DNA of 64,000 nucleotides from Bacteroidia bacterium (GTDB lineage Bacteria > Bacteroidota > Bacteroidia > Chitinophagales > Chitinophagaceae), in assembly GCA_030429205.1 (NCBI GenBank), contig JAUICZ010000005.1, forward strand, positions 1 to 64,000. Reading direction: 5' to 3'. Below the pieces are notes generated by a model. That model was not told where the DNA came from. It saw only the letters and a list, made by a program, of their open reading frames with translations, and ran no database searches. Each line of letters begins with the position of its first letter. Position 1 is the first letter of the stretch. A program made the position numbers and the translations under genes. Shown one piece after another: positions 7,223 to 16,609 of this stretch.

Positions 7223-7843
7223 TTATATGCCGAAATGCTCTTTACACCAGGGGTGTTGCAGATGGTCTATAGCATCAGGGTTAACTGTATGTGCAGGGTT
7301 TAATTTGTGATACAAGGCTTCCATGCTGGCGTAGTCTCTCTGGCTGATGACCTTATAGCCATTGCGTATCAACAGCGCCGCAGCTACACCTGCGCCTACC
7401 TGATAAACAGGGTTTTCTGCACGGCGCATTCCTTCATATATTACCTGGCTGCCGCATGCCGCACTTACATCCATCAGTACACATAGTTCAACATTGTTTT
7501 TCTGTGCTACTTCAAGCATCTTTTTTGCACCCTCTATCATGCCTGCTGTCCAGTCGTCGCCTTCTTCTGTCAGTACTTTTGCTTTGCCATTCAACACATC
7601 AAAGCCGTCGCCACCATGTATATCGCAGAGCCTGCGTGGTGTACCGAATGAAAAATCCTCAGGGCAAAAACGACTCACTTTTATTTTATCGTACTTCAGT
7701 AGCTGAATAATGGTGGGGTAGTCTGCATATGCCTGGTTATCGAACCCGCAGACAATACCTGTAAAGCAAGCGCTCATTAACAGGCGTAAAGGATCTTCTG
7801 TACTCGGGGTGCGCAGGTTGCGGATGTATTCAATGTCTGTCAT
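7223..7843 (-). CDS. DUF523-like protein
   Basis: From the ATG at 7843 the protein has 206 residues. It contains the DUF523-type pattern: SACFTGIVCGFDNQ near the N-terminus, SRFCPEDFSFGTPRR, and a third cysteine in SAACGS. Conserved cysteines suggest metal or cluster binding, but no activity is known to me. The reading frame stays open upstream to 8044; those extra 67 codons are translated from the palindrome array at 7895-8057 and should not be annotated as protein. The ATG at 7843 begins MTDIEYIRNLR, consistent with the family start. Confidence 0.72.
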   Translation of the reverse strand: MTDIEYIRNLRTPSTEDPLRLLMSACFTGIVCGFDNQAYADYPTIIQLLKYDKIKVSRFCPEDFSFGTPRRLCDIHGGDGFDVLNGKAKVLTEEGDDWTAGMIEGAKKMLEVAQKNNVELCVLMDVSAACGSQVIYEGMRRAENPVYQVGAGVAAALLIRNGYKVISQRDYASMEALYHKLNPAHTVNPDAIDHLQHPWCKEHFGI

Positions 7844-7894
7844 TGGGTGGAGTGTATGTGTACCCCAAATATACAAGTTGAGATTGGCAAGACT

Positions 7895-8057
7895 GTGCCG
7901 TGTGCCAAAAAGTGGCACAGGAACACTCGAATTTGTATAGGTGTTCGGTGTTCGGATTTTAGAACAGCGAACAATGAGGGTTATATGATAGCGTTCATCG
8001 TTCACTTTTTTGAACGGTGAACGTTTTATTTCATTCCATCCCATTTTTGGGATGTGG
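7895..8057. repeat. palindrome array, copy A (four hairpins)
   Basis: Four consecutive hairpins with centres about 48, 50 and 39 bp apart: 7895-7924, 7942-7973, 7992-8023 and 8036-8057. In each, both arms hold a short word twice, for example GTTCATCGTTCA pairing with TGAACGGTGAAC, and TGTTCGGTGTTC with GAACAGCGAACA. The linkers are conserved too: the first three hairpins with linkers match 12670-12797 closely (I estimate over 80% identity by eye). The array fills the gap between the DUF523-like gene and the esterase gene. It is not a known element to me. Confidence 0.9.
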
Positions 8058-8062
8058 TATGT

Positions 8063-9091
8063 TTAAAATGGTTTTTTATTTAGCCAGTTAATGAGTGTCC
8101 ACTCTTCTTTTTTACCGTTTACTATAGCAGCAAATACTAAGTTGTCCTTATTATTCAACTCATTTTTATTGATAGTTATAGGTTGTAAAGAGATGGTATA
8201 CTCATTGAGTAGCTTGCTTATTTTCTTATAGTTGTAATCGTCTCTATTATTATCCTGCTCAGCAACAGAGTAGCGTTTGCCTATTTTACTTTTAAAAGGA
8301 TATAACTCTTTAATAACTCCGTTTAATACAAAACCATCTATAGGTGGATATACTTTAATTTCATCACCTGATGAAGCAGTTTCTGTTTTAAGAGATAATA
8401 TGTTTATCCCTTGCTCTATATCTTCTTGCGTATACTCTTTAAAAGAGTGGCTGCCTGCTCTTAAATAGAAGTAAGTATGCTCATTCAATATCTTTTGCCT
8501 GCGGTATTCTAATAAAGGAAATTCATAGGGTATTACTTTATCCGACTCGGTAGCATAGAATATGATATGCTTGCCCATGCCTTTATAATGATCTACTGTT
8601 TTGTAATAGTTTTTGTGTTGAGGGTAGCCATTGAACATCCACAGCCCTGCGAACAGCTCGGGGTGTTGATAGAAGATGCGGAATGCTCCTGTGCCGCCAT
8701 CAGAGAACCCCGATATAATAACTTCCTGATAGTTAGCAGCATGTTTATTAACCAGCTCTGTAATAAACTTTACTCCTCCCTCTTCCAGCCAGTTATATTC
8801 GTTATAAGCTATAGGCGTGATGACATCGTATCCTGTGGCAAATACAGTTGGTAAGAAAACAGTATTCCCCTCAAACATATTATCCAAAGAGATTGATTTG
8901 GGTGTTTGCAACCCTTTGAACTGGCTGACACCACCATGCATGTATATAATAACCCCTTTTTTATCTGCTTTGTCAGAAGTAGTTATATGATATAACAGTG
9001 AATGACCATCTACTGTAATAGTATCAGGTGCTGTCGCCCTGCTGAGTAGTGGAAGTAATAATACGATCAGGTAAAAGAGGTGTTTGCTCAT
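8063..9091 (-). CDS. secreted alpha/beta-hydrolase (esterase-like)
   Basis: From the ATG at 9091 the protein has 342 residues with a signal peptide ending near LLSRATA. An alpha/beta-hydrolase fold is indicated by the strand-HGG oxyanion segment (GVIIYMHGGVSQF), nucleophile elbow ISGFSDGGTG, acid candidate ATESDKVIP and histidine in AGSHSFKEY. This fits a PHB-depolymerase/feruloyl-esterase-like enzyme acting on an exported substrate; specificity is unknown. The C-terminal 100 residues do not look like hydrolase core. An in-frame ATG at 9112 would add seven residues ahead of the signal peptide and is less likely. Confidence 0.75.
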   Translation of the reverse strand: MSKHLFYLIVLLLPLLSRATAPDTITVDGHSLLYHITTSDKADKKGVIIYMHGGVSQFKGLQTPKSISLDNMFEGNTVFLPTVFATGYDVITPIAYNEYNWLEEGGVKFITELVNKHAANYQEVIISGFSDGGTGAFRIFYQHPELFAGLWMFNGYPQHKNYYKTVDHYKGMGKHIIFYATESDKVIPYEFPLLEYRRQKILNEHTYFYLRAGSHSFKEYTQEDIEQGINILSLKTETASSGDEIKVYPPIDGFVLNGVIKELYPFKSKIGKRYSVAEQDNNRDDYNYKKISKLLNEYTISLQPITINKNELNNKDNLVFAAIVNGKKEEWTLINWLNKKPF

Positions 9092-9135
9092 AGTAATAGA
9101 TCTAATATACAAAGGTTATGCCAAGGTAAAGGAAA

Positions 9136-9167
9136 TGTGCCGTGTGCCATTTTTGGCACATGGCACA
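9136..9167. repeat. single palindrome of the array family
   Basis: A solitary hairpin (GTGCCGTGTGCC pairing with GGCACATGGCAC around a short T-rich loop) of the same double-word design as the first hairpin of copy A. It sits just upstream of the esterase start. The rest of the 9092-9429 gap is AT-rich and shows nothing I can name; it must hold the promoter of the lectin-like gene at 9430. Confidence 0.8.
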
Positions 9168-9429
9168 CATGAGATTTTTATGAGTATCATTCTTAAATCT
9201 CTCCTTTTGGTAGAACAGTATTTCTGAAATGTTGTGTGAAAAGAGGTTTTAAGCAAACCAAACAGTTAATTAAACGAATGGCTGTATTTAAAGAGGGGGC
9301 TTAGTACGACATTTATCTTACCAATTAATTCACTTAAAAACTCTACTTCCAATTATGATAGATACAAGTTAACACTAACCGTATTGCTCAACAGTTTCTA
9401 ACACATTTTATTATCTAAAAATTTATTAA

Positions 9430-10722
9430 ATGAAAAAAATAGTTTTTCAAATAGGCATGCTATGCTCCATTAGTAGTATAGCATGGGCACAAAACCCACC
9501 GGTTACACAAGATCTAAAGCTGTACCTGGAGGTGTTGAATAATGCTGCCAGCTTTACCCCTGGCTCAGTTCCTCAATATACATTAGGTACTACACCTGCA
9601 TATTGGAGCGATCAATCAAACTCAGGAACTGATGTTCAAACCTTTTTTGATCCGAATACTCCTCTAAATAATCCCCAATATGTTTTCAATGCTCACAATA
9701 CAGGATTTGATGCTGTAAGGTTTGACCAATCAGTGATGGAAAATGTCATAATACCTTTTGATCCAGCTTTTGATGCTGCAGAAGCTACTCTTTTTGTTGT
9801 ACGCATAGCAGAGACTGAAGTTCAGCAGGTATTGCCGGGTAGTAATGGAGTCATGAATCGTCCTTATCAAAGTATGGTTTCTATAGCAGAACCTACTGCT
9901 TTAGGTTTTCAGGATTATAATAATGAATTTGGTATAGGTGGAGATGTAGGGCTTCATCATACTACATCAGGTACTTATAACTACAGAAATCAACAATGCT
10001 TCGGTGTTGTAGGTAGCCAACTGCCTGATGACAGGCCCGTTGCATTATGTGCAAGGTTAGGGCAACAGGCAATGGATATTGATTATTGGGTAAATGGAGT
10101 TCTCTCAACCAACGTTATTCAGCAAACAGTTAATGTGGCACAGCCATACACAGTCGCTGACAGACGTTGGGTAGTAGGTGGACGATTCAAAAGTGGAGCA
10201 CTGCTTAGAGATGAATCGTTCAACGGAGACATCCTGGAGGTTCTAGCGTATGAAAGAAGGTTAACAGATGCGGAAGTAGATGCGGTTAATGATTACCTGA
10301 AGTGCAAGTACAACATCAACTACTCCAACGCGCAATGTAATGACCCTATTAATTGCGACTGTTCATATGAGCTGAATGGTAGTATGGTAATTGCACTAAA
10401 TGCCGCATTGAATGTACAGTATACAGGTCCCGATGCAAACGGTAATTGTCAATTTACTGCTACAGCAAGCGCTACATTGGCCCCAGGCTGGATAGTAGAT
10501 GGGTATGAATGGACAATACCGGGTGTAGGGCATATTAGTACATCTACATCGGCACTGACAGACACTCAGGTTTTTTCATTGCTAAATAATTCTACTGATG
10601 ACGTTACTGTGCGTGTTTTAGCACACAATAATAATTATGGAGATATGGATCCTCATTGGTGTTGTAATCATGAGGTTACTGTAAATGTATGGTGTCAGGG
10701 TAGTCAAGGAGGTACAAACTAA
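9430..10722 (+). CDS. secreted lectin-like (LamG/concanavalin) protein, no sorting domain
   Basis: A 430-residue exported protein: signal peptide to about residue 20 (ending AWAQ), then a jelly-roll concanavalin-A/LamG-like domain to about residue 290 (WSDQSNSGTD near the start, ILEVLAYERRLTDAEVDAVNDYL at its end, quoted in parts: LEVLAYERRL and DAEVDAVNDYL), then a Cys-rich beta-domain to the C-terminus. The pattern closely follows that of the next gene, its paralogue, but this one stops after WCQGSQGGTN and lacks the T9SS C-terminal domain the other carries. It is therefore probably released to the periplasm, or displayed through the partner. Ligand unknown; carbohydrate binding is an inference from the fold. 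Confidence 0.72.
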   Translation: MKKIVFQIGMLCSISSIAWAQNPPVTQDLKLYLEVLNNAASFTPGSVPQYTLGTTPAYWSDQSNSGTDVQTFFDPNTPLNNPQYVFNAHNTGFDAVRFDQSVMENVIIPFDPAFDAAEATLFVVRIAETEVQQVLPGSNGVMNRPYQSMVSIAEPTALGFQDYNNEFGIGGDVGLHHTTSGTYNYRNQQCFGVVGSQLPDDRPVALCARLGQQAMDIDYWVNGVLSTNVIQQTVNVAQPYTVADRRWVVGGRFKSGALLRDESFNGDILEVLAYERRLTDAEVDAVNDYLKCKYNINYSNAQCNDPINCDCSYELNGSMVIALNAALNVQYTGPDANGNCQFTATASATLAPGWIVDGYEWTIPGVGHISTSTSALTDTQVFSLLNNSTDDVTVRVLAHNNNYGDMDPHWCCNHEVTVNVWCQGSQGGTN

Positions 10723-10755
10723 ATGCCGATCAATTTCTAACTAAAAAATTTTAAA

Positions 10756-12417
10756 ATGAAGAAAATAATATTAGCAGCCATAGCTTTACAGCTATGCTAT
10801 ACAACAGCATATTGTCAGACGCCACCGGTAACTAGCGGGCTGGTGCTTCACCTTGATGCAAAGGTAGGGTTTACACCCGGAGACCCTCCTCTTACTGTAC
10901 CATCTCCCCCTGTTTGTACCGGAGGTACACTTGCAGGTACTCCTGTTTATGCTACATGGCAAGATCAATCGGGTATGGGTAATGATGTAACTACGGGAGA
11001 TGTTGTAACGTGGACTACCGCTCAATCAATCATAACATGTAATAATGCGAATCCAAGGTATGTTACTAATGTTCACAATACAGGATTTGATGCGATCTAC
11101 TTTGATGGTAATGACTACATGACCACTTCTCCAAGCTTTTCGGGTGGCTTATCTGCTGCAAATGGATTGTCAAGTGCTGATAATGTTACAGAAACAACAT
11201 TGTTTGTAGTACGTATCGGAGCGCCAGGGTACCAGGGGCAAGCAGGAGATGACAGAAATGGGATTATGGTTTCTTTGACAGATACAGACCCTGCTTCCTT
11301 ACCCGGTTATAATATACCTTATCCTCCAACTACACCAACTAATGTGCGGGATGAGTTCTCATTAATGAGAGACTGGGCAGCAAATATTGTAACATTGACA
11401 TCAGCTGGTCACACTATAGCGTATAAAGAGCATCAATGTTTTCAGCAGTTATATGGTTATAGGCCAGTTGTATTATCTACAACATTGGGTACGAACTATT
11501 CTGACGTAGAGTACTATATAAACGGTTTGCAGTCTACAGAGCCGCTACAGGTTAATCCACCTGCCGTTAGTACATATACCCACCTGCCTGTAGACAGGGT
11601 TATCTCTATAGGTGCAAGGCATGGCGCAGCGTATTATGCACTGGGGTTTCACTTTTCAGAACCATTAGAGGGGTATATTTTTGAGGTGTTGGTTTATAAC
11701 AGAAAACTATCTCCGGCTGAAGTAGATGAGGTAAATGATTTTCTGAAATGTAAATACGACATCAGGTACTCAACTTGTAATACGCCGATCGTTTCATGCC
11801 CAAAAGTATGTTGGACATCTCCAAGCTTAGACATTAATTATATAGGTAAAGATGGTTTAGGCAATTGCATTTTTGAATGTACTGCAAATGCACAAACTAT
11901 GAGCGGTGTGACCAACTTTGCATACGAATGGTCGGTACCGGGTATGCCAAATATGTTGGTTCATTCGTCAGCACCAACTGATGTTCAAACATTTACGATT
12001 CCGTTGGGTTCTGCAAATATTAGTGTAAAACTATTGGGGGTAAATGATGGTACTAGTGAAGACCTCCCGTGTTGCGAATATACTCTTAGCAGGCCTGTGT
12101 ATTGCGGAGACCTTGATGGAGGAACGGAAGATTATGAGAAACCTGGAAGGACAACTACTGTGCAGGCTATTGAAAGTATTGATGGTATAGCGATATACCC
12201 TAATCCTACTTTTGACAAGGTGAATATTAAGTTGCCGGATAATAATGCTTATGAAATAGCTGTGTACGATTTTACAGGTAAACTTACCCAAAAGACTACC
12301 AGCGAAGGAAATGTTACTACTTTGAATTTTGGAGCATATGCTAAAGGTATATACATGATAAGAATAAGTGATAATACAGGCAGGGAAGTGAAAGTAGAGA
12401 AAGTGATGCTTAAGTAG
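10756..12417 (+). CDS. secreted lectin-like protein with T9SS type A sorting domain
   Basis: A 553-residue paralogue of the gene 33 bp upstream. Signal peptide to about residue 20 (ending AYCQ), a LamG/concanavalin-like domain (WQDQSGMGND, FEVLVYNRKLSPAEVDEVND), a Cys-rich beta-domain, and a C-terminal T9SS type A sorting domain of about 75 residues (IAIYPNPTFDKVNIKLP to MIRISDNTGREVKVEKVMLK). The sorting domain directs export across the outer membrane by the type IX system and is normally cleaved, with anchoring to the surface. With the preceding gene it likely forms one operon. The stop is followed by palindrome arrays. Confidence 0.85.
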   Translation: MKKIILAAIALQLCYTTAYCQTPPVTSGLVLHLDAKVGFTPGDPPLTVPSPPVCTGGTLAGTPVYATWQDQSGMGNDVTTGDVVTWTTAQSIITCNNANPRYVTNVHNTGFDAIYFDGNDYMTTSPSFSGGLSAANGLSSADNVTETTLFVVRIGAPGYQGQAGDDRNGIMVSLTDTDPASLPGYNIPYPPTTPTNVRDEFSLMRDWAANIVTLTSAGHTIAYKEHQCFQQLYGYRPVVLSTTLGTNYSDVEYYINGLQSTEPLQVNPPAVSTYTHLPVDRVISIGARHGAAYYALGFHFSEPLEGYIFEVLVYNRKLSPAEVDEVNDFLKCKYDIRYSTCNTPIVSCPKVCWTSPSLDINYIGKDGLGNCIFECTANAQTMSGVTNFAYEWSVPGMPNMLVHSSAPTDVQTFTIPLGSANISVKLLGVNDGTSEDLPCCEYTLSRPVYCGDLDGGTEDYEKPGRTTTVQAIESIDGIAIYPNPTFDKVNIKLPDNNAYEIAVYDFTGKLTQKTTSEGNVTTLNFGAYAKGIYMIRISDNTGREVKVEKVMLK

Positions 12418-12443
12418 TTTAGTGAATAGTTGAATAGTATAAG

Positions 12444-12560
12444 TGTTCCGCGTTCTATTTTCGGAACAGGGAACAATACGATTTAGATCATAGCGTTCAT
12501 CGTTCATTTTTTTGAACGGTGAACGTTTTGTTTCATTCCATGCCATTTTTTGGCATGCGG
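12444..12560. repeat. palindrome array, copy B (three hairpins)
   Basis: Three hairpins: 12444-12474 (GTTCCGCGTTC with GGAACAGGGAAC), 12494-12525 (CGTTCATCGTTCA with TGAACGGTGAACG) and 12538-12560 (CCATGCCA with TGGCATGCGG). Centres are about 50 and 40 bp apart, matching hairpins 2-4 of copy A in order and spacing. Located immediately after the stop of the T9SS lectin-like gene. Confidence 0.88.
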
Positions 12561-12669
12561 GATACTTACAACACTATTATTATAACAAGTTGTTTTATTA
12601 ATAAATATTATATATATTAGGGTGTTAAGAGCGTATAGTAGCGATTAAAATCAAAAAGCAGTTTTACAT

Positions 12670-12890
12670 GTACCGTGCCATTTTTTTGGCACAGGAACAG
12701 TTGAATTTATATGGGTGTTCAGTGTTCGGGTTTTAGAACAGCGAACAATAAGGGTTATATCACAGCGTTCACCGTTCAACTTTTTGAACGATGAACGATT
12801 GTTGAACAGAATATATGCCACATGCCAAAATTGGTACAGATGATATAGCTTTATCAGATGTTCTGCGTTCTAAAAGTCGAACACCGAACA
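12670..12890. repeat. palindrome array, copy C (five hairpins)
   Basis: Five hairpins with centres about 48, 50, 48 and 46 bp apart: 12670-12698, 12716-12747, 12766-12797, 12816-12845 (weak) and 12859-12890 (TGTTCTGCGTTC with GAACACCGAACA). The first three and their linkers repeat copy A. The array ends about 110 bp before dnaE. The 580-bp gap 12418-12997 is largely made of copies B and C; 12561-12669 and 12891-12997 show nothing else I recognise, though the latter must hold the dnaE promoter. Confidence 0.88.
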
Positions 12891-12997
12891 CTCGTACACG
12901 TGGTATTACTTCTTATCCCCCCTTGTGGATAATTGCGGCACTATTCACCATCCCTTTTCCGTAATTTTATAATTACCTCAAAAATCAGGATAGGACA

Positions 12998-15900
12998 GTG
13001 CAGTTTTCTCATTTACATAATCATACTCAGTTCTCTTTGCTCGATGGTGCGTCGGCTATTCCGCGTTTGTACCAAAAGGCAGAGGCCGATAATATGTCGG
13101 CAATGGCCATCACCGATCATGGTAACATGTTCGGAGTGTTCGAGTTTGTATCGCAGGCGTGGAAGAACACCAAAGTAGTAGGTAAAGACGAGAATGGAAA
13201 TGATATTGTAGAGCCGGTAGTAAAACCCATTGTGGGTTGTGAGTTCTACCTGGTAGAGGACAGGCACAAAAGGCAGTTTAGCCGTGAGGAGCGCGATGTG
13301 CGTTACCACCAGTTACTACTGGCAAAAGACGAGGTAGGGTATAAGAACCTTGTTAAACTGTGCTCTCTGGGGTATATAGAAGGTTTGTATGGTAAGTACC
13401 CGCGTATAGATAAAGAACTGATAGAAAAATACAGCGAAGGGTTGATAGCCACTACCTGTTGTTTGGCAGCAGAAGTGCCGCGTACTATTTTGCGTAAGGG
13501 AGAAGAAGAGGCAGAGAAGGTGTTTCAATGGTGGCACAACCTTTTTGGTGATGACTATTATGTAGAACTGCAACGCCACGACATACCAGACCAGATAAAA
13601 GCCAATGAGGTGTTGGTGAAGTTTGCCCGCAAGTATAATGTGCCCATTATAGCTTCTAACGATAGCCACTATGTAGAGCAGGAAGATGCCAACGCACACG
13701 ACATTTTGTTGTGTATCAATACAGGCGAGAAGCAGGCAACGCCTAAGATGAAGGACTTTGACGATGAAGGTAAAAAAGCAAAAGATTCGCGTTTTGCCTT
13801 TTATAACGATCAGTTCTTCTTCAAGACAACAGACCAGATGACCGAGGTGTTTAAAGACATACCCGAGGCCATTGACAATACGCAGCAGATAGTAGATAAG
13901 GTAAAACCTTTGAAGCTGGAGCGAGACATATTACTACCACACTTTAAAGTACCAGCAGAGTTCAACGATGATCAGGATGCATACCTGCACCACCTGACGA
14001 TGGAGGGCGCAAGGGAGCGTTACAAGGAGATCACAGCAGAGATAGAAGAGCGTTTGAACTTTGAGCTGTTCACCATTAAAACAATGGGGTTTGCAGGGTA
14101 CTTCCTTATTGTGGCAGACTTTATACAGGCTGGTCGTGATATAGGCGTGTTTGTTGGTCCGGGTAGGGGTAGTGCTGCAGGTAGTGCGGTGGCTTATTGT
14201 ATTGGTATCACTAATATAGATCCCATCAAGTACAACCTCCTGTTTGAGCGTTTCTTGAATCCTGAGCGTAAGAGCATGCCCGATATTGATACCGACTTTG
14301 ATGATGCGGGCAGGCAGAAGGTGATAGACTATGTGGTAGATAAGTATGGTAAAAATCAGGTAGCACACATCATTACCTATGGCACGATGGCTGCCAAAAT
14401 GAGTATCAAGGACGTAGCGCGTGTGCTGGATCTGCCATTGGCAGATGCCAACGCATTGGCAAAGATGGTGCCCGACCGTCCAGGTATATCACTTAAAAGA
14501 TTATTGAACGCTCCTATAAAAGGAGATAAGAGTTTGTCAGATAAAGAGGGGCTGGGTAGTGATGAGATACAATTGGTAGAAAAGCTGAGAGAGTTGCATA
14601 TCTCCCAATCCATTCAGGGAGATGTACTCCGCGAGGCAGAGAAGCTGGAAGGTAGTGTACGCAATACAGGTATACATGCGGCAGGTATCATCATTGCACC
14701 TAAAGATCTTTCTGAACTAATACCCGTTGCTGCCAACAAAGATGTAGAGCTACTCATTACACAGTTTGAGGGTGGTATTATCGAAGACTCGGGTGTAATT
14801 AAGATGGACTTTTTGGGATTAAAAACCCTGACCATTCTTAAAGATGCCCTTGAGCTGATAAAAAGAAATTACGATGTAGATATAGTGTTGGATGATCTGC
14901 CATTGGACGATCAGAAAACATTTGAATTATACCAGCGCGGAGAGACTAATGGTACTTTCCAGTTTGAGAGCCCGGGTATGCAGAAGTACCTGCGCGAACT
15001 AAAGCCCGATAAGTTTGACGACCTCATTGCGATGAACGCCTTGTATCGTCCGGGGCCGCTGGAGTATATCCCGAACTTTATTAAACGTAAACATGGCTTA
15101 GAAGAGATCAGCTACGACTTGCCGGAGATGGAAGAGTATCTGGGTGATACTTATGGTATTACCGTGTATCAGGAGCAGGTGATGCTACTATCGCAAAAGC
15201 TGGGCGGGTTTAGTAAAGGAGATGCCGATGTGCTGCGTAAAGCCATGGGTAAGAAAAAGAAGGATGTACTGGATAAAATGAAAACCCAGTTTGTAGAGGG
15301 TGCCGTTAAAAAAGGACATCCTGAAGACAAGCTAAATAAAGTATGGAAAGACTGGGAAGCCTTTGCGCAATACGCCTTCAACAAATCGCACTCTACTTGT
15401 TACGCCTTTGTAGCCTACCAAACAGCCTACCTCAAGGCACACTACCCCGCAGAGTATATGGCGGCGGTACTCAATAACCAGAATACGATTGAAAAGATCA
15501 AGTTCTATATGGAGGAGTGCCAGCGTATGGAGCTGAAGGTATTGGGACCTGATGTAAATGAAAGCTTGAAAGGTTTTTCGGTTAGTGATGAGAGTGTGAT
15601 TCGTTTTGGTATGAATGCCATTAAAGGTGTGGGTGAAGCAGCAGTAGAAGACCTGATAAGAGAACGAGAGGAGAATGGTTTATATACCTCTCCGTTTGAC
15701 ATGATAACAAGGGTAAACCAAAGAACGGTTAATAAGAAATCTTTAGAGAACCTGGTACTGGCAGGTGCTTTCGATAATTTTGAAGAGATGCACAGGGCGC
15801 AGTATTTCTATGCACCACCAACAGACCCTGCCACTGGTTTAGAGCGCTTGGTGCGTTTTGGTAATCAGTTTCAGGCAAATAAAGATCAGGCGACGAATAG

Positions 15901-16609
15901 CTTGTTTGGGGAAGCGCAGATGCCGGAGATACAACCACCGCAAATGCCCGAGTGTGAGCCATGGCCTTTGCCGGAGCTATTGGAAAGAGAGATAGATGTG
16001 GTAGGTATATACTTGAGTGCGCATCCGTTAGACGGTTACGCCTTTGAGATGAACAACTATGGCTTTACCAATATTGTTGATGTTGAAAAATGTAAAGACA
16101 GAACCATACGCATAGCCGGTTATGTTACTGATGCGGAACATAGGGTTACCAAAAAAGGAAGCAAGTTTGGTAAGCTGGTACTAAACGATTACTCGGGACA
16201 CCAGGAGATCATGTTTTGGCAGAACAACTATGTGAAGTATGCCAACTTTATAGATAACGGGCAGAAGCTGATGATACAGGGCATATATAAAGAGCATAAA
16301 TACAGGCCGGGAGTGATGGAGTTTGAGATACACACAGTCATATTGTTAGATGATGTGAAAACACGCTACACTAAAAAGATGAAACTGTTGATGCCGCTAA
16401 ATAAAATTGATGATGATTTGGTAGCCTTTTTAGGCAAAAACCTGAATGAGCACCCGGGTAATACTGATTTGGTTTTACAGGTGTATGACCAAGAGGAGGA
16501 AACACAAGCAGGATTAAAAACAGCAAGTAAAAGAATAGCGATAAATGACGAGTTGGTAGAATATGTTAATGAGCGCGATTATATGCAATTTGCACTGGAA
16601 ACTCAGTAA
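12998..16609 (+). CDS. dnaE: DNA polymerase III subunit alpha
   Basis: A 1203-residue replicative polymerase. N-terminal PHP domain with intact metal-site residues (HLHNHTQFSLLDG at residues 4-16, ITDHGN), the alpha-subunit catalytic core (GRGSAAGS; the PDIDTDFDD aspartates), helix-hairpin-helix region, and C-terminal OB-fold (FGKLVLNDYSGHQEIMFW in parts). It synthesises DNA within the Pol III holoenzyme. The start is GTG at 12998, chosen because the protein then opens MQFSHLHNHTQ as in the family; there is no ATG at that place. Length is normal for Bacteroidota DnaE. No partner gene nearby. Confidence 0.97.
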   Translation: MQFSHLHNHTQFSLLDGASAIPRLYQKAEADNMSAMAITDHGNMFGVFEFVSQAWKNTKVVGKDENGNDIVEPVVKPIVGCEFYLVEDRHKRQFSREERDVRYHQLLLAKDEVGYKNLVKLCSLGYIEGLYGKYPRIDKELIEKYSEGLIATTCCLAAEVPRTILRKGEEEAEKVFQWWHNLFGDDYYVELQRHDIPDQIKANEVLVKFARKYNVPIIASNDSHYVEQEDANAHDILLCINTGEKQATPKMKDFDDEGKKAKDSRFAFYNDQFFFKTTDQMTEVFKDIPEAIDNTQQIVDKVKPLKLERDILLPHFKVPAEFNDDQDAYLHHLTMEGARERYKEITAEIEERLNFELFTIKTMGFAGYFLIVADFIQAGRDIGVFVGPGRGSAAGSAVAYCIGITNIDPIKYNLLFERFLNPERKSMPDIDTDFDDAGRQKVIDYVVDKYGKNQVAHIITYGTMAAKMSIKDVARVLDLPLADANALAKMVPDRPGISLKRLLNAPIKGDKSLSDKEGLGSDEIQLVEKLRELHISQSIQGDVLREAEKLEGSVRNTGIHAAGIIIAPKDLSELIPVAANKDVELLITQFEGGIIEDSGVIKMDFLGLKTLTILKDALELIKRNYDVDIVLDDLPLDDQKTFELYQRGETNGTFQFESPGMQKYLRELKPDKFDDLIAMNALYRPGPLEYIPNFIKRKHGLEEISYDLPEMEEYLGDTYGITVYQEQVMLLSQKLGGFSKGDADVLRKAMGKKKKDVLDKMKTQFVEGAVKKGHPEDKLNKVWKDWEAFAQYAFNKSHSTCYAFVAYQTAYLKAHYPAEYMAAVLNNQNTIEKIKFYMEECQRMELKVLGPDVNESLKGFSVSDESVIRFGMNAIKGVGEAAVEDLIREREENGLYTSPFDMITRVNQRTVNKKSLENLVLAGAFDNFEEMHRAQYFYAPPTDPATGLERLVRFGNQFQANKDQATNSLFGEAQMPEIQPPQMPECEPWPLPELLEREIDVVGIYLSAHPLDGYAFEMNNYGFTNIVDVEKCKDRTIRIAGYVTDAEHRVTKKGSKFGKLVLNDYSGHQEIMFWQNNYVKYANFIDNGQKLMIQGIYKEHKYRPGVMEFEIHTVILLDDVKTRYTKKMKLLMPLNKIDDDLVAFLGKNLNEHPGNTDLVLQVYDQEEETQAGLKTASKRIAINDELVEYVNERDYMQFALETQ

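What the first reader, a model, noticed from the sequence alone, without database searches (positions are those of the whole stretch)
7895..12890. Ordered arrays of double-word palindromes, a repeat family I do not recognise
Twelve hairpins in arrays of 4, 3 and 5 plus one solitary copy (9136-9167; thirteen in all). Each arm contains its word twice (GTTC n GTTC, GTTCA n GTTCA, TGCC n TGCC, CCA n CCA), so arms can pair in two registers. Hairpin order and centre spacing (about 48, 50, 39 bp) are kept between arrays, and linkers are also conserved between 7895-8023 and 12670-12797. This is not ordinary terminator sequence: T-tracts are in loops rather than after stems, and several stand in a row. 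It resembles bacterial REP/BIME elements in habit, but the nested direct-plus-inverted design with different words in a fixed order is unusual. Possible roles: protein binding arrays, processed RNAs, or mobilised units.
Basis: seen in the sequence. Interest (0 to 1): 0.72.

Follow-up and report, generated by a model that had tools for sequence, protein, structure and literature searches.

The report
Hairpins built from seven-base repeats
A bacterial genome carries one small cluster of DNA hairpins whose arms are built from repeated seven-letter words, and related bacteria carry the same design with other words, mostly just after genes, which points to a widespread but poorly described kind of repeat rather than a mobile REP element.

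Summary
The hairpins are real. Eight share one strict 30-nt design: word, 3 nt, word, 8 nt, complement, 3 nt, complement (word GTTC or GTGC, so the arm step is 7). Across these eight, 89 of 96 stem cells pair, with changes on both sides at 6 of 12 pairs. The fixed order comes from one block present three times. The GTTC design occurs 7 times in the 3.64-Mb genome, all within 5 kb. REP/BIME is not supported: no Y1/RAYT match, no tag, no dispersal. A word-free scan of 1.81 Mb from relatives finds 13 such palindromes at step 7 against 1.8 expected, with different words. Of 29 such loci lying between called genes, 21 are tandem, 8 convergent, 0 divergent. Heptamer repeats are in print for other bacteria, with inverted pairs in Xanthomonas. 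Best reading: degenerate heptamer-repeat palindromes working as hairpins at transcript 3' ends; new variant of a known kind, function inferred. Against: the most perfect hairpin (9136-9167) lies in a divergent gap; step 6 is also enriched in the scan, probably from codons; DNA-level roles or a neutral origin are not excluded.

The parts
7894..7925 (+). Array 1, hairpin 1 (TGTGCCG TGTGCCA ... TGGCACA GGAACA); outer word of right arm diverged
7942..7973 (+). Array 1, hairpin 2, strict GTTC N3 GTTC N8 GAAC N3 GAAC
7992..8023 (+). Array 1, hairpin 3, strict GTTC design, terminator-like T tail on + strand
8032..8057 (+). Array 1, hairpin 4 (CATTCCATCCCA/TGGGATG, step 5), 5 nt from the stop codon of ORF 8063-9112
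9136..9167 (+). Solitary 14-bp hairpin (TGTGCCG TGTGCCA tttt TGGCACA TGGCACA), in a divergent gap
12443..12475 (+). Array 2, hairpin 2, strict GTTC design
12494..12525 (+). Array 2, hairpin 3, strict GTTC design, terminator-like T tail
12534..12560 (+). Array 2, hairpin 4 (CATTCCATGCCA ... TGGCATG), step 5
12669..12699 (+). Array 3, hairpin 1 (TGTACCGTGCCA ... TGGCACAGGAACA), left arm two bases shorter
12715..12747 (+). Array 3, hairpin 2, strict GTTC design
12766..12797 (+). Array 3, hairpin 3, strict GTTC design
12816..12838 (+). Decayed hairpin-1-like copy (TGCCACATGCCAAAATTGGTACA)
   Evidence: weak
12859..12890 (-). Hairpin 2 in inverse orientation, strict GTTC design
7913..8026 (+). Block copy 1 (ungapped 114 nt); other copies at 12415-12528 and 12687-12800
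8063..9112 (-). ORF (weak Abhydrolase_2 match, below the curated cut-off) whose 3' end abuts array 1; no match at E 1e-15 in 38 relatives
10756..12417 (+). Protein with a T9SS sorting tail; first hairpin of array 2 starts 25 nt after its stop
12998..16609 (+). dnaE, downstream of array 3; dnaE-trxA order conserved in relatives, upstream region not

Best explanation
These are palindromes whose arms are short tandem heptamer repeats (two units per arm here), a local Bacteroidota example of the heptanucleotide-repeat hairpins described in some other bacteria. The likely history: one 30-nt hairpin of N-GT-K-C-NN units gave a block of three to four hairpins about 49 nt apart, and the block was copied within 5 kb. 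SHOWN: the geometry, the block copies, the constancy of the words, and covariation that keeps the stems paired. INFERRED: they act as hairpins in the RNA 3' of genes (ending transcripts or shielding them from 3' exonucleases), because loci of this design sit behind stop codons and were not seen between divergent genes elsewhere. What is selected is pairing, not one particular word; slippage at a step of 7 supplies the raw material (inferred).
For: Words identical at 32 of 32 positions across the three block copies against 29 of 48 others, Fisher P 1e-5. On 8 strict hairpins 89 of 96 cells paired, 6 of 12 pairs with changes on both sides (4 of 500 shuffles reach this), covariation score reached by 0 of 500 shuffles and by no slid version. 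Other words at step 7 in relatives: 13 against 1.8 expected in 93 stretches, 1.81 Mb; in the 66 of these stretches from genomes not chosen for hits, 9 against 1.1, P 2e-6. CAAG version: 15 matches at 14 places in 7 family genomes, a third unit at offset 7 in 22 of 28 arms against 0-2 of 28 at other offsets; for GTTC loci elsewhere 15 of 46 against 0-6. 29 loci between called genes: 21 tandem, 8 convergent, 0 divergent; baseline divergent 19% by number, 24% by length; P 0.002 or 0.0003; for the 21 family loci alone 0.012 or 0.003. Hairpin 4 of array 1 and its two relatives on contig 4 lie 4-10 nt from a stop codon. Published parallels: PMC4692102, PMC2700814, PMC3488679 (passages).
Against: The best hairpin (9136-9167) is in a divergent gap, behind no gene. 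G.U cells and A.C cells are about equally frequent (4 against 3, counted by eye), so RNA is not favoured over a DNA cruciform. The 8 copies are related, so the covariation reflects few events, and one of its five measures does not beat the shuffles (further pair types, 142 of 500). Step 6 is as common as step 7 in the unselected genomes (9 and 9); I read it as codon periodicity because its outer units match at chance level (0.26). Arms here have only two units, with no third outside (0-5 of 14 at word phases). The 3'-bias test dropped 22 loci in called ORFs and one at a contig edge, with crude ORF calls. No transcript data.
Confidence: 0.45

Rival explanations
1. Neutral by-product: replication slippage at a 7-nt step plus template switching at fold-backs makes and edits such palindromes; they persist only where they do no harm (3' intergenic space).
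For: Words differ between and within genomes while the step stays 7; not found in the three genus mates, two of them incomplete, and locally clustered; the slippage idea for heptamers is in print (quoted in PMC4679880 and PMC4692102); template switching would also make both arms agree.
Against: Words more constant than spacers and linkers between block copies.
Confidence: 0.27
2. Binding array for a DNA-binding protein (global regulator or nucleoid protein) that reads pairs of half-sites 7 bp apart on each strand.
For: Same length, 30 nt, in 8 of 8 strict copies; constant words; in Geobacter metallireducens, pairs of tandem octamer (class 1) or heptamer (class 3) repeats on opposite strands were annotated as predicted global-regulator binding sites (PMC2700814 passages).
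Against: The word changes in concert in all four places (GTTC to GTGC); words differ within one relative's genome; no GTTC copies elsewhere in this genome. Constant length may only reflect common descent.
Confidence: 0.13
3. Mobile REP/BIME or MITE-like elements moved by a RAYT or other transposase.
For: Palindromic, intergenic, in groups, one inverted copy. REP criteria are not absolute: REPtrons can be lost, CGTC REPs lack a dedicated transposase, and one GTAG family is clustered at few loci (PMC3733652 passages).
Against: No Y1_Tnp match in the genome while 3 of 3 genus mates have one; all 7 GTTC copies within 5 kb; no GTAG/CGTC at the strict hairpins; no match of the first array in plasmids or phages and none of the hairpin-3 pattern in viral contigs.
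Confidence: 0.07
4. Ordinary intrinsic terminators that happen to be repeated.
For: Hairpin 3 of arrays 1 and 2 has a T tail; clusters of hairpins, mostly within 80 nt of stop codons, are reported to terminate without U tails (PMC8355165, abstract and one section).
Against: 10 of the 13 are not listed as terminator-like; the region has 8 such sites against 4.1 (sd 2.0) in shuffles; strong hairpins elsewhere in this genome look different; array 1 lies behind a minus-strand gene but its listed terminator-like sites are on the plus strand.
Confidence: 0.08

Closest known systems
Heptameric GGGAATC repeats of Xanthomonas and GGGGA(C/T)T of Nostoc (PMC4692102; passages seen)
   Same: Step 7; mostly intergenic; often within 50 bp of a stop codon; under-represented between divergent genes; 70 and 75 convergent (inverted) pairs in two Xanthomonas genomes that could form stem-loops
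   Different: G-quadruplex words, many genome-wide copies, longer runs, few inverted pairs in Nostoc; here GTTC/GTGC words, two units per arm, one locus
Geobacter metallireducens tandem heptamer and octamer elements (PMC2700814; passages seen)
   Same: [quoted passage not shown] predicted regulator sites of classes 1 and 3 are tandem octamers or heptamers in opposite-strand pairs
   Different: Step 8 in the two-unit case; multicopy across the genome; roles proposed, not tested in the passages seen
Degenerate heptanucleotide hairpin P6b of the cyanobacterial tRNA-Leu intron (PMC3488679; passages seen)
   Same: Degenerate heptamers pair into a hairpin; copy number varies
   Different: Inside an intron; no Rfam intron match here
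TAACTGA heptamer repeats of Beggiatoaceae, Cyanobacteria and five Bacteroidetes (PMC4679880; abstract and passages seen)
   Same: Step 7, largely intergenic, also in Bacteroidetes
   Different: 169 direct sets and one indirect in the main genome, mostly just upstream of start codons
REP/BIME with RAYT (PMC3733652; passages seen)
   Same: Short palindromes, close to 3' ends, mostly between tandem and convergent genes
   Different: GTAG/CGTC tag, RAYT, dispersal: not found here

Membership tests
Heptamer tandem-repeat elements (STRR / long simple sequence repeats) | Unit length 7 repeated head to tail | tested here: met
   Step 7 in 8 of 8 strict hairpins, but only two units per arm
Heptamer tandem-repeat elements (STRR / long simple sequence repeats) | Long runs and many copies genome-wide | tested here: not met
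   All 7 GTTC copies in 5 kb; 0 step-7 palindromes in 315 kb of the same genome; in 379 kb two period-7 runs at 13 of 16 and none at 14 or more
REP/BIME | GTAG or CGTC tetranucleotide at the hairpin foot | tested here: not met
   Neither, on either strand, in the 8 stretches holding the 8 strict hairpins
REP/BIME | RAYT (Y1 transposase) in the genome | tested here: not met
   No PF01797 match at E 0.001 in G000; 13 of 18 relatives, including 3 of 3 genus mates, have matches. Absence alone does not exclude CGTC REPs
REP/BIME | Many copies dispersed in the genome | tested here: not met
REP/BIME | Located between tandem or convergent genes | tested here: inconclusive
   Arrays yes, solitary hairpin no (the script called array 1 convergent because it dropped ORF 7223-8044, which overlaps the array; with that gene array 1 is tandem)
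Intrinsic terminator | GC-rich stem followed by a T tract | tested here: inconclusive
   3 of 13 hairpins listed as terminator-like (7990-8025, 12492-12527, 8037-8054), all on + strand
Known structured RNA | Match to an Rfam family | tested here: not met
   Only tRNA and 5S in the window at gathering scores
3'-end RNA hairpin | Transcribed and defines or protects RNA 3' ends | not testable with these tools
   Needs RNA-seq or Term-seq

The most novel reading that the evidence does not exclude
A sequence-blind process shared by distant bacteria makes and keeps palindromes with a fixed 7-nt step: the words turn over freely, within and between genomes, while the step and the pairing of the arms are held. 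That would make 7 nt a property of a machine (polymerase, nuclease or an RNA-binding factor), not of a sequence family.
Probability: 0.13. Interest if true: 0.75.

Novelty: new variant of a known kind. Interest (0 to 1): 0.42.

Why it matters
Heptamer repeats are reported as the most abundant class of longer simple repeats in most of the repeat-rich genomes surveyed (quoted in PMC4679880), and why 7 is open. Here the same step appears in palindromes with unrelated words in one bacterial family, and with the GTTC word in loci of other phyla, with pairing kept while letters change. That makes 'why seven?' testable by Term-seq and by strain comparison, and gives a word-free detector for finding such elements.

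Tried and rejected
REP/BIME with RAYT: disfavoured. Plasmids and phages: no match of the first array; viral contigs: no match of the hairpin-3 pattern, the only form scanned. Same array in relatives: 58 relatives gave 3 hits (L008-L010), all judged chance on reading them. Homologues of ORF 8063-9112: none at E 1e-15 in 38 relatives, so arrays could not be compared at orthologous places. TGCC double-word search in the own genome and three genus mates with one mismatch: the solitary hairpin in the own genome and 7 unconvincing places in the mates. Period-7 runs outside the cluster: 2 weak ones in 379 kb. A mistaken pattern (CTTG...CAAG) gave 0 of 7 genomes; the true reversed control (CAAG...CTTG) turned out to be a repeat family itself, so it was no clean control. 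Of the 9 GTTC places in 9 other family genomes, 5 lie in called ORFs and are probably chance, three of them in one gene region of one genus. Steps other than 7 in the word-free scan of 93 stretches: 6 (10 against 1.9), 9 (5 against 1.3), 12 (5 against 1.7), 8 (5 against 1.6), 11 (4 against 2.2). Outer-unit identity is 0.26 for step 6 and 0.18 for 12 (codon-like noise), but 0.46, 0.41 and 0.48 for 8, 9 and 11, against 0.48 for 7; so 7 is the main step but not the only one. In the 66 stretches from genomes not chosen for hits: step 6 9, step 7 9, step 11 4, step 8 3, steps 9 and 12 2 each, 4 and 10 1 each. Eight of the first 12 step-7 hits fell inside open frames of 100 aa or more. Spacer complementarity in other loci is only weakly above shuffles (P 0.04 and 0.04; own 0.08). 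Two-register pairing: not competitive. Paper searches; no paper on Bacteroidota hairpins of this kind appeared in those listings. Mazel 1990, Costa 2002, Mrazek 2007 and Elhai 2008 are recalled or known only as cited in the papers seen.
Full report
WHAT IS THERE. The window is contig 6, bases 1-64000, of a 3,641,557-base genome in 12 contigs. A T9SS sorting domain on ORF 10756-12417 says Bacteroidota (inference); no name is given. The thirteen hairpins lie at 7894-8057, 9136-9167, 12443-12560 and 12669-12890. A hairpin scan of the window finds 14 against 6 and 9 in two Markov controls. Four of five array stretches and the solitary hairpin fold with z between -3.1 and -8.7, while 12800-12905 does not stand out (z -1.2).

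THE DESIGN. Reading h1, h2 and h3 in one register shows a single plan: GTKC N3 GTKC N8 GMAC N3 GMAC, 30 nt, without gaps in 8 of 8 strict copies. The arm step is 7. A detector that knows no word (any 4-mer with three or more different letters, twice per arm at step 4-12, complement twice in the other arm, loop up to 16) finds exactly these 8 in the window, all at step 7; in 315,314 bases of the same genome (16 stretches, two of them chosen next to the contig-4 hairpins) it finds 3 hits, none at step 7. The CCA hairpin (h4) is built differently, with step 5; two relatives lie on contig 4 (L061 14731-14754 and 15965-15992), 4 and 10 nt from a stop codon.

COPIES AND CONSTRAINT. An ungapped 114-nt block is present three times (100, 83 and 79 of 114 identical). 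Inside h2 to h3 the word positions are identical in all three copies at 32 of 32 places, the rest at 29 of 48 (Fisher P 1e-5); the words were defined from the first copy. Across the 8 strict hairpins 89 of 96 cells pair; 6 of 12 pairs show changes on both sides; 0 of 500 shuffles reach the covariation score, 4 of 500 the number of such pairs, but 142 of 500 the number of further pair types; sliding the partner by 1-3 columns lowers all of them. The change GTTC to GTGC in the solitary hairpin is made in all four words. So pairing is kept while letters change. The copies are related, so few independent events stand behind this, and the tool warns that related rows can beat every shuffle. The middle spacer pair is unpaired in 4 of 8.

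NOT A GENOME-WIDE REP FAMILY. The GTTC pattern occurs 7 times in the genome, all here, control 0. BLAST of the first array at E up to 1 finds only places inside the finding and one h4 hairpin on contig 4. 58 relatives have no copy (three chance hits read). No Y1 transposase match is found in the genome, although 13 of 18 relatives, including 3 of 3 genus mates, have one. There is no GTAG or CGTC at the strict hairpins. Plasmids and phages have no match of the first array, viral contigs none of the hairpin-3 pattern. None of the ten window proteins tested from before dnaE was found upstream of dnaE in the relatives' loci, including 11.9 kb of the best genus mate, and ORF 8063-9112 has no homologue at E 1e-15 in 38 relatives.

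THE SAME DESIGN ELSEWHERE. Nine of 243 other family genomes carry the GTTC pattern once each; five of these places lie in called ORFs. A scan of a large genome collection with a stricter form gave 8 loci: Verrucomicrobia (two, one of them Opitutaceae), Armatimonadetes (three in one genome), Planctomycetota, Methylomirabilota and Streptomyces; several are plainly runs of heptamers that turn into their complement. The reversed control of the pattern search, CAAG, proved to be a family of its own: 15 matches at 14 places in 7 family genomes, with a third unit at offset 7 in 22 of 28 arms against 0-2 at offsets 4-6 and 8-10; GTTC loci elsewhere 15 of 46 against 0-6. In 93 stretches (1,814,533 bases) of family genomes not picked around hits, the word-free detector gave 13 at step 7 against 1.8 per Markov control (P 6e-8); seven stretches picked around hits were left out. 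Some of the 93 come from genomes that had been chosen for having hits; in the 66 stretches (1,274,533 bases) from genomes not so chosen it gave 9 against 1.1 (P 2e-6; three of the 9 in one stretch). Results against a pure '7': step 6 gave 10 and 9 in the two sets, and steps 8, 9, 11 and 12 were also above control in the first. Step 6 and 12 look like codon periodicity (outer units at chance identity), but 8, 9 and 11 do not.

WHERE THEY SIT. Of 52 loci outside the own genome (14 CAAG, 9 and 14 GTTC, 15 step-7; the one step-7 hit's extra stretches was not placed), 22 fall in called ORFs and one at a contig end; the other 29 are 21 tandem, 8 convergent and 0 divergent. Among 960 gaps of 30 nt or more in the family stretches, 19% by number and 24% by length are divergent, so P is 0.002 or 0.0003 (0.012 or 0.003 for the 21 family loci alone). 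ORF calls were crude. In the window, array 1 abuts the 3' end of ORF 8063-9112, array 2 starts 25 nt after the stop of 10756-12417, array 3 follows further on, but the solitary hairpin lies in a divergent gap, against the rule.

WHAT IS KNOWN. Passages of PMC4692102 report heptameric repeats in Xanthomonas and Nostoc, often within 50 bp of a stop codon, under-represented between divergent genes, with 70 and 75 inverted pairs in two Xanthomonas genomes, and state that no detailed literature on heptameric repeats was available. PMC4679880 (abstract and passages) reports TAACTGA repeats in Beggiatoaceae, Cyanobacteria and five Bacteroidetes, and cites the slippage idea for 7. PMC2700814 (passages) lists tandem heptamer and octamer elements, one set with two units in tandem on each strand. 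PMC3488679 (passages) describes degenerate heptanucleotides pairing into a hairpin. PMC3733652 (passages) gives the REP criteria. PMC8355165 (abstract and one section) argues that hairpin clusters behind stop codons terminate without U tails.

VERDICT. The best reading is a small, locally multiplied set of heptamer-repeat palindromes, acting as RNA hairpins at gene ends (inferred). A purely mutational origin is the strongest rival. It is a new variant of a known kind; the word-independent step of 7 in palindromes is the part a specialist should look at.

Noticed in passing
window 9430-10722 and 10756-12417: Two adjacent paralogous proteins (33% identity over 485 aligned columns); the first has no Pfam match at E 0.001, the second a T9SS sorting tail.
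   Followed up: partly
L099 1501-1527 (Methylomirabilota genome): A GTTC heptamer palindrome about 35 nt upstream of a tmRNA gene (1562-1915).
   Followed up: partly
L094 1501-1528 (Armatimonadetes genome): A perfect GTTCAAC heptamer palindrome inside a long open frame that reads like a non-ribosomal peptide synthetase (name recalled, not tested).
   Followed up: no
L061 14731-14754 and 15965-15992 (own genome, contig 4): Two step-5 hairpins like the fourth hairpin of array 1, each 4-10 nt behind the stop codon of a minus-strand ORF.
   Followed up: partly
L123 around 1501-1529 (family genome G214): Long CAAG/CTTG array with about eight and six units; the 4-letter word is nearly constant while the 3 other letters vary, which simple slippage does not explain.
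   Followed up: partly
genus mates G001-G003: All three have Y1-type transposase matches while the window's genome has none.
   Followed up: no
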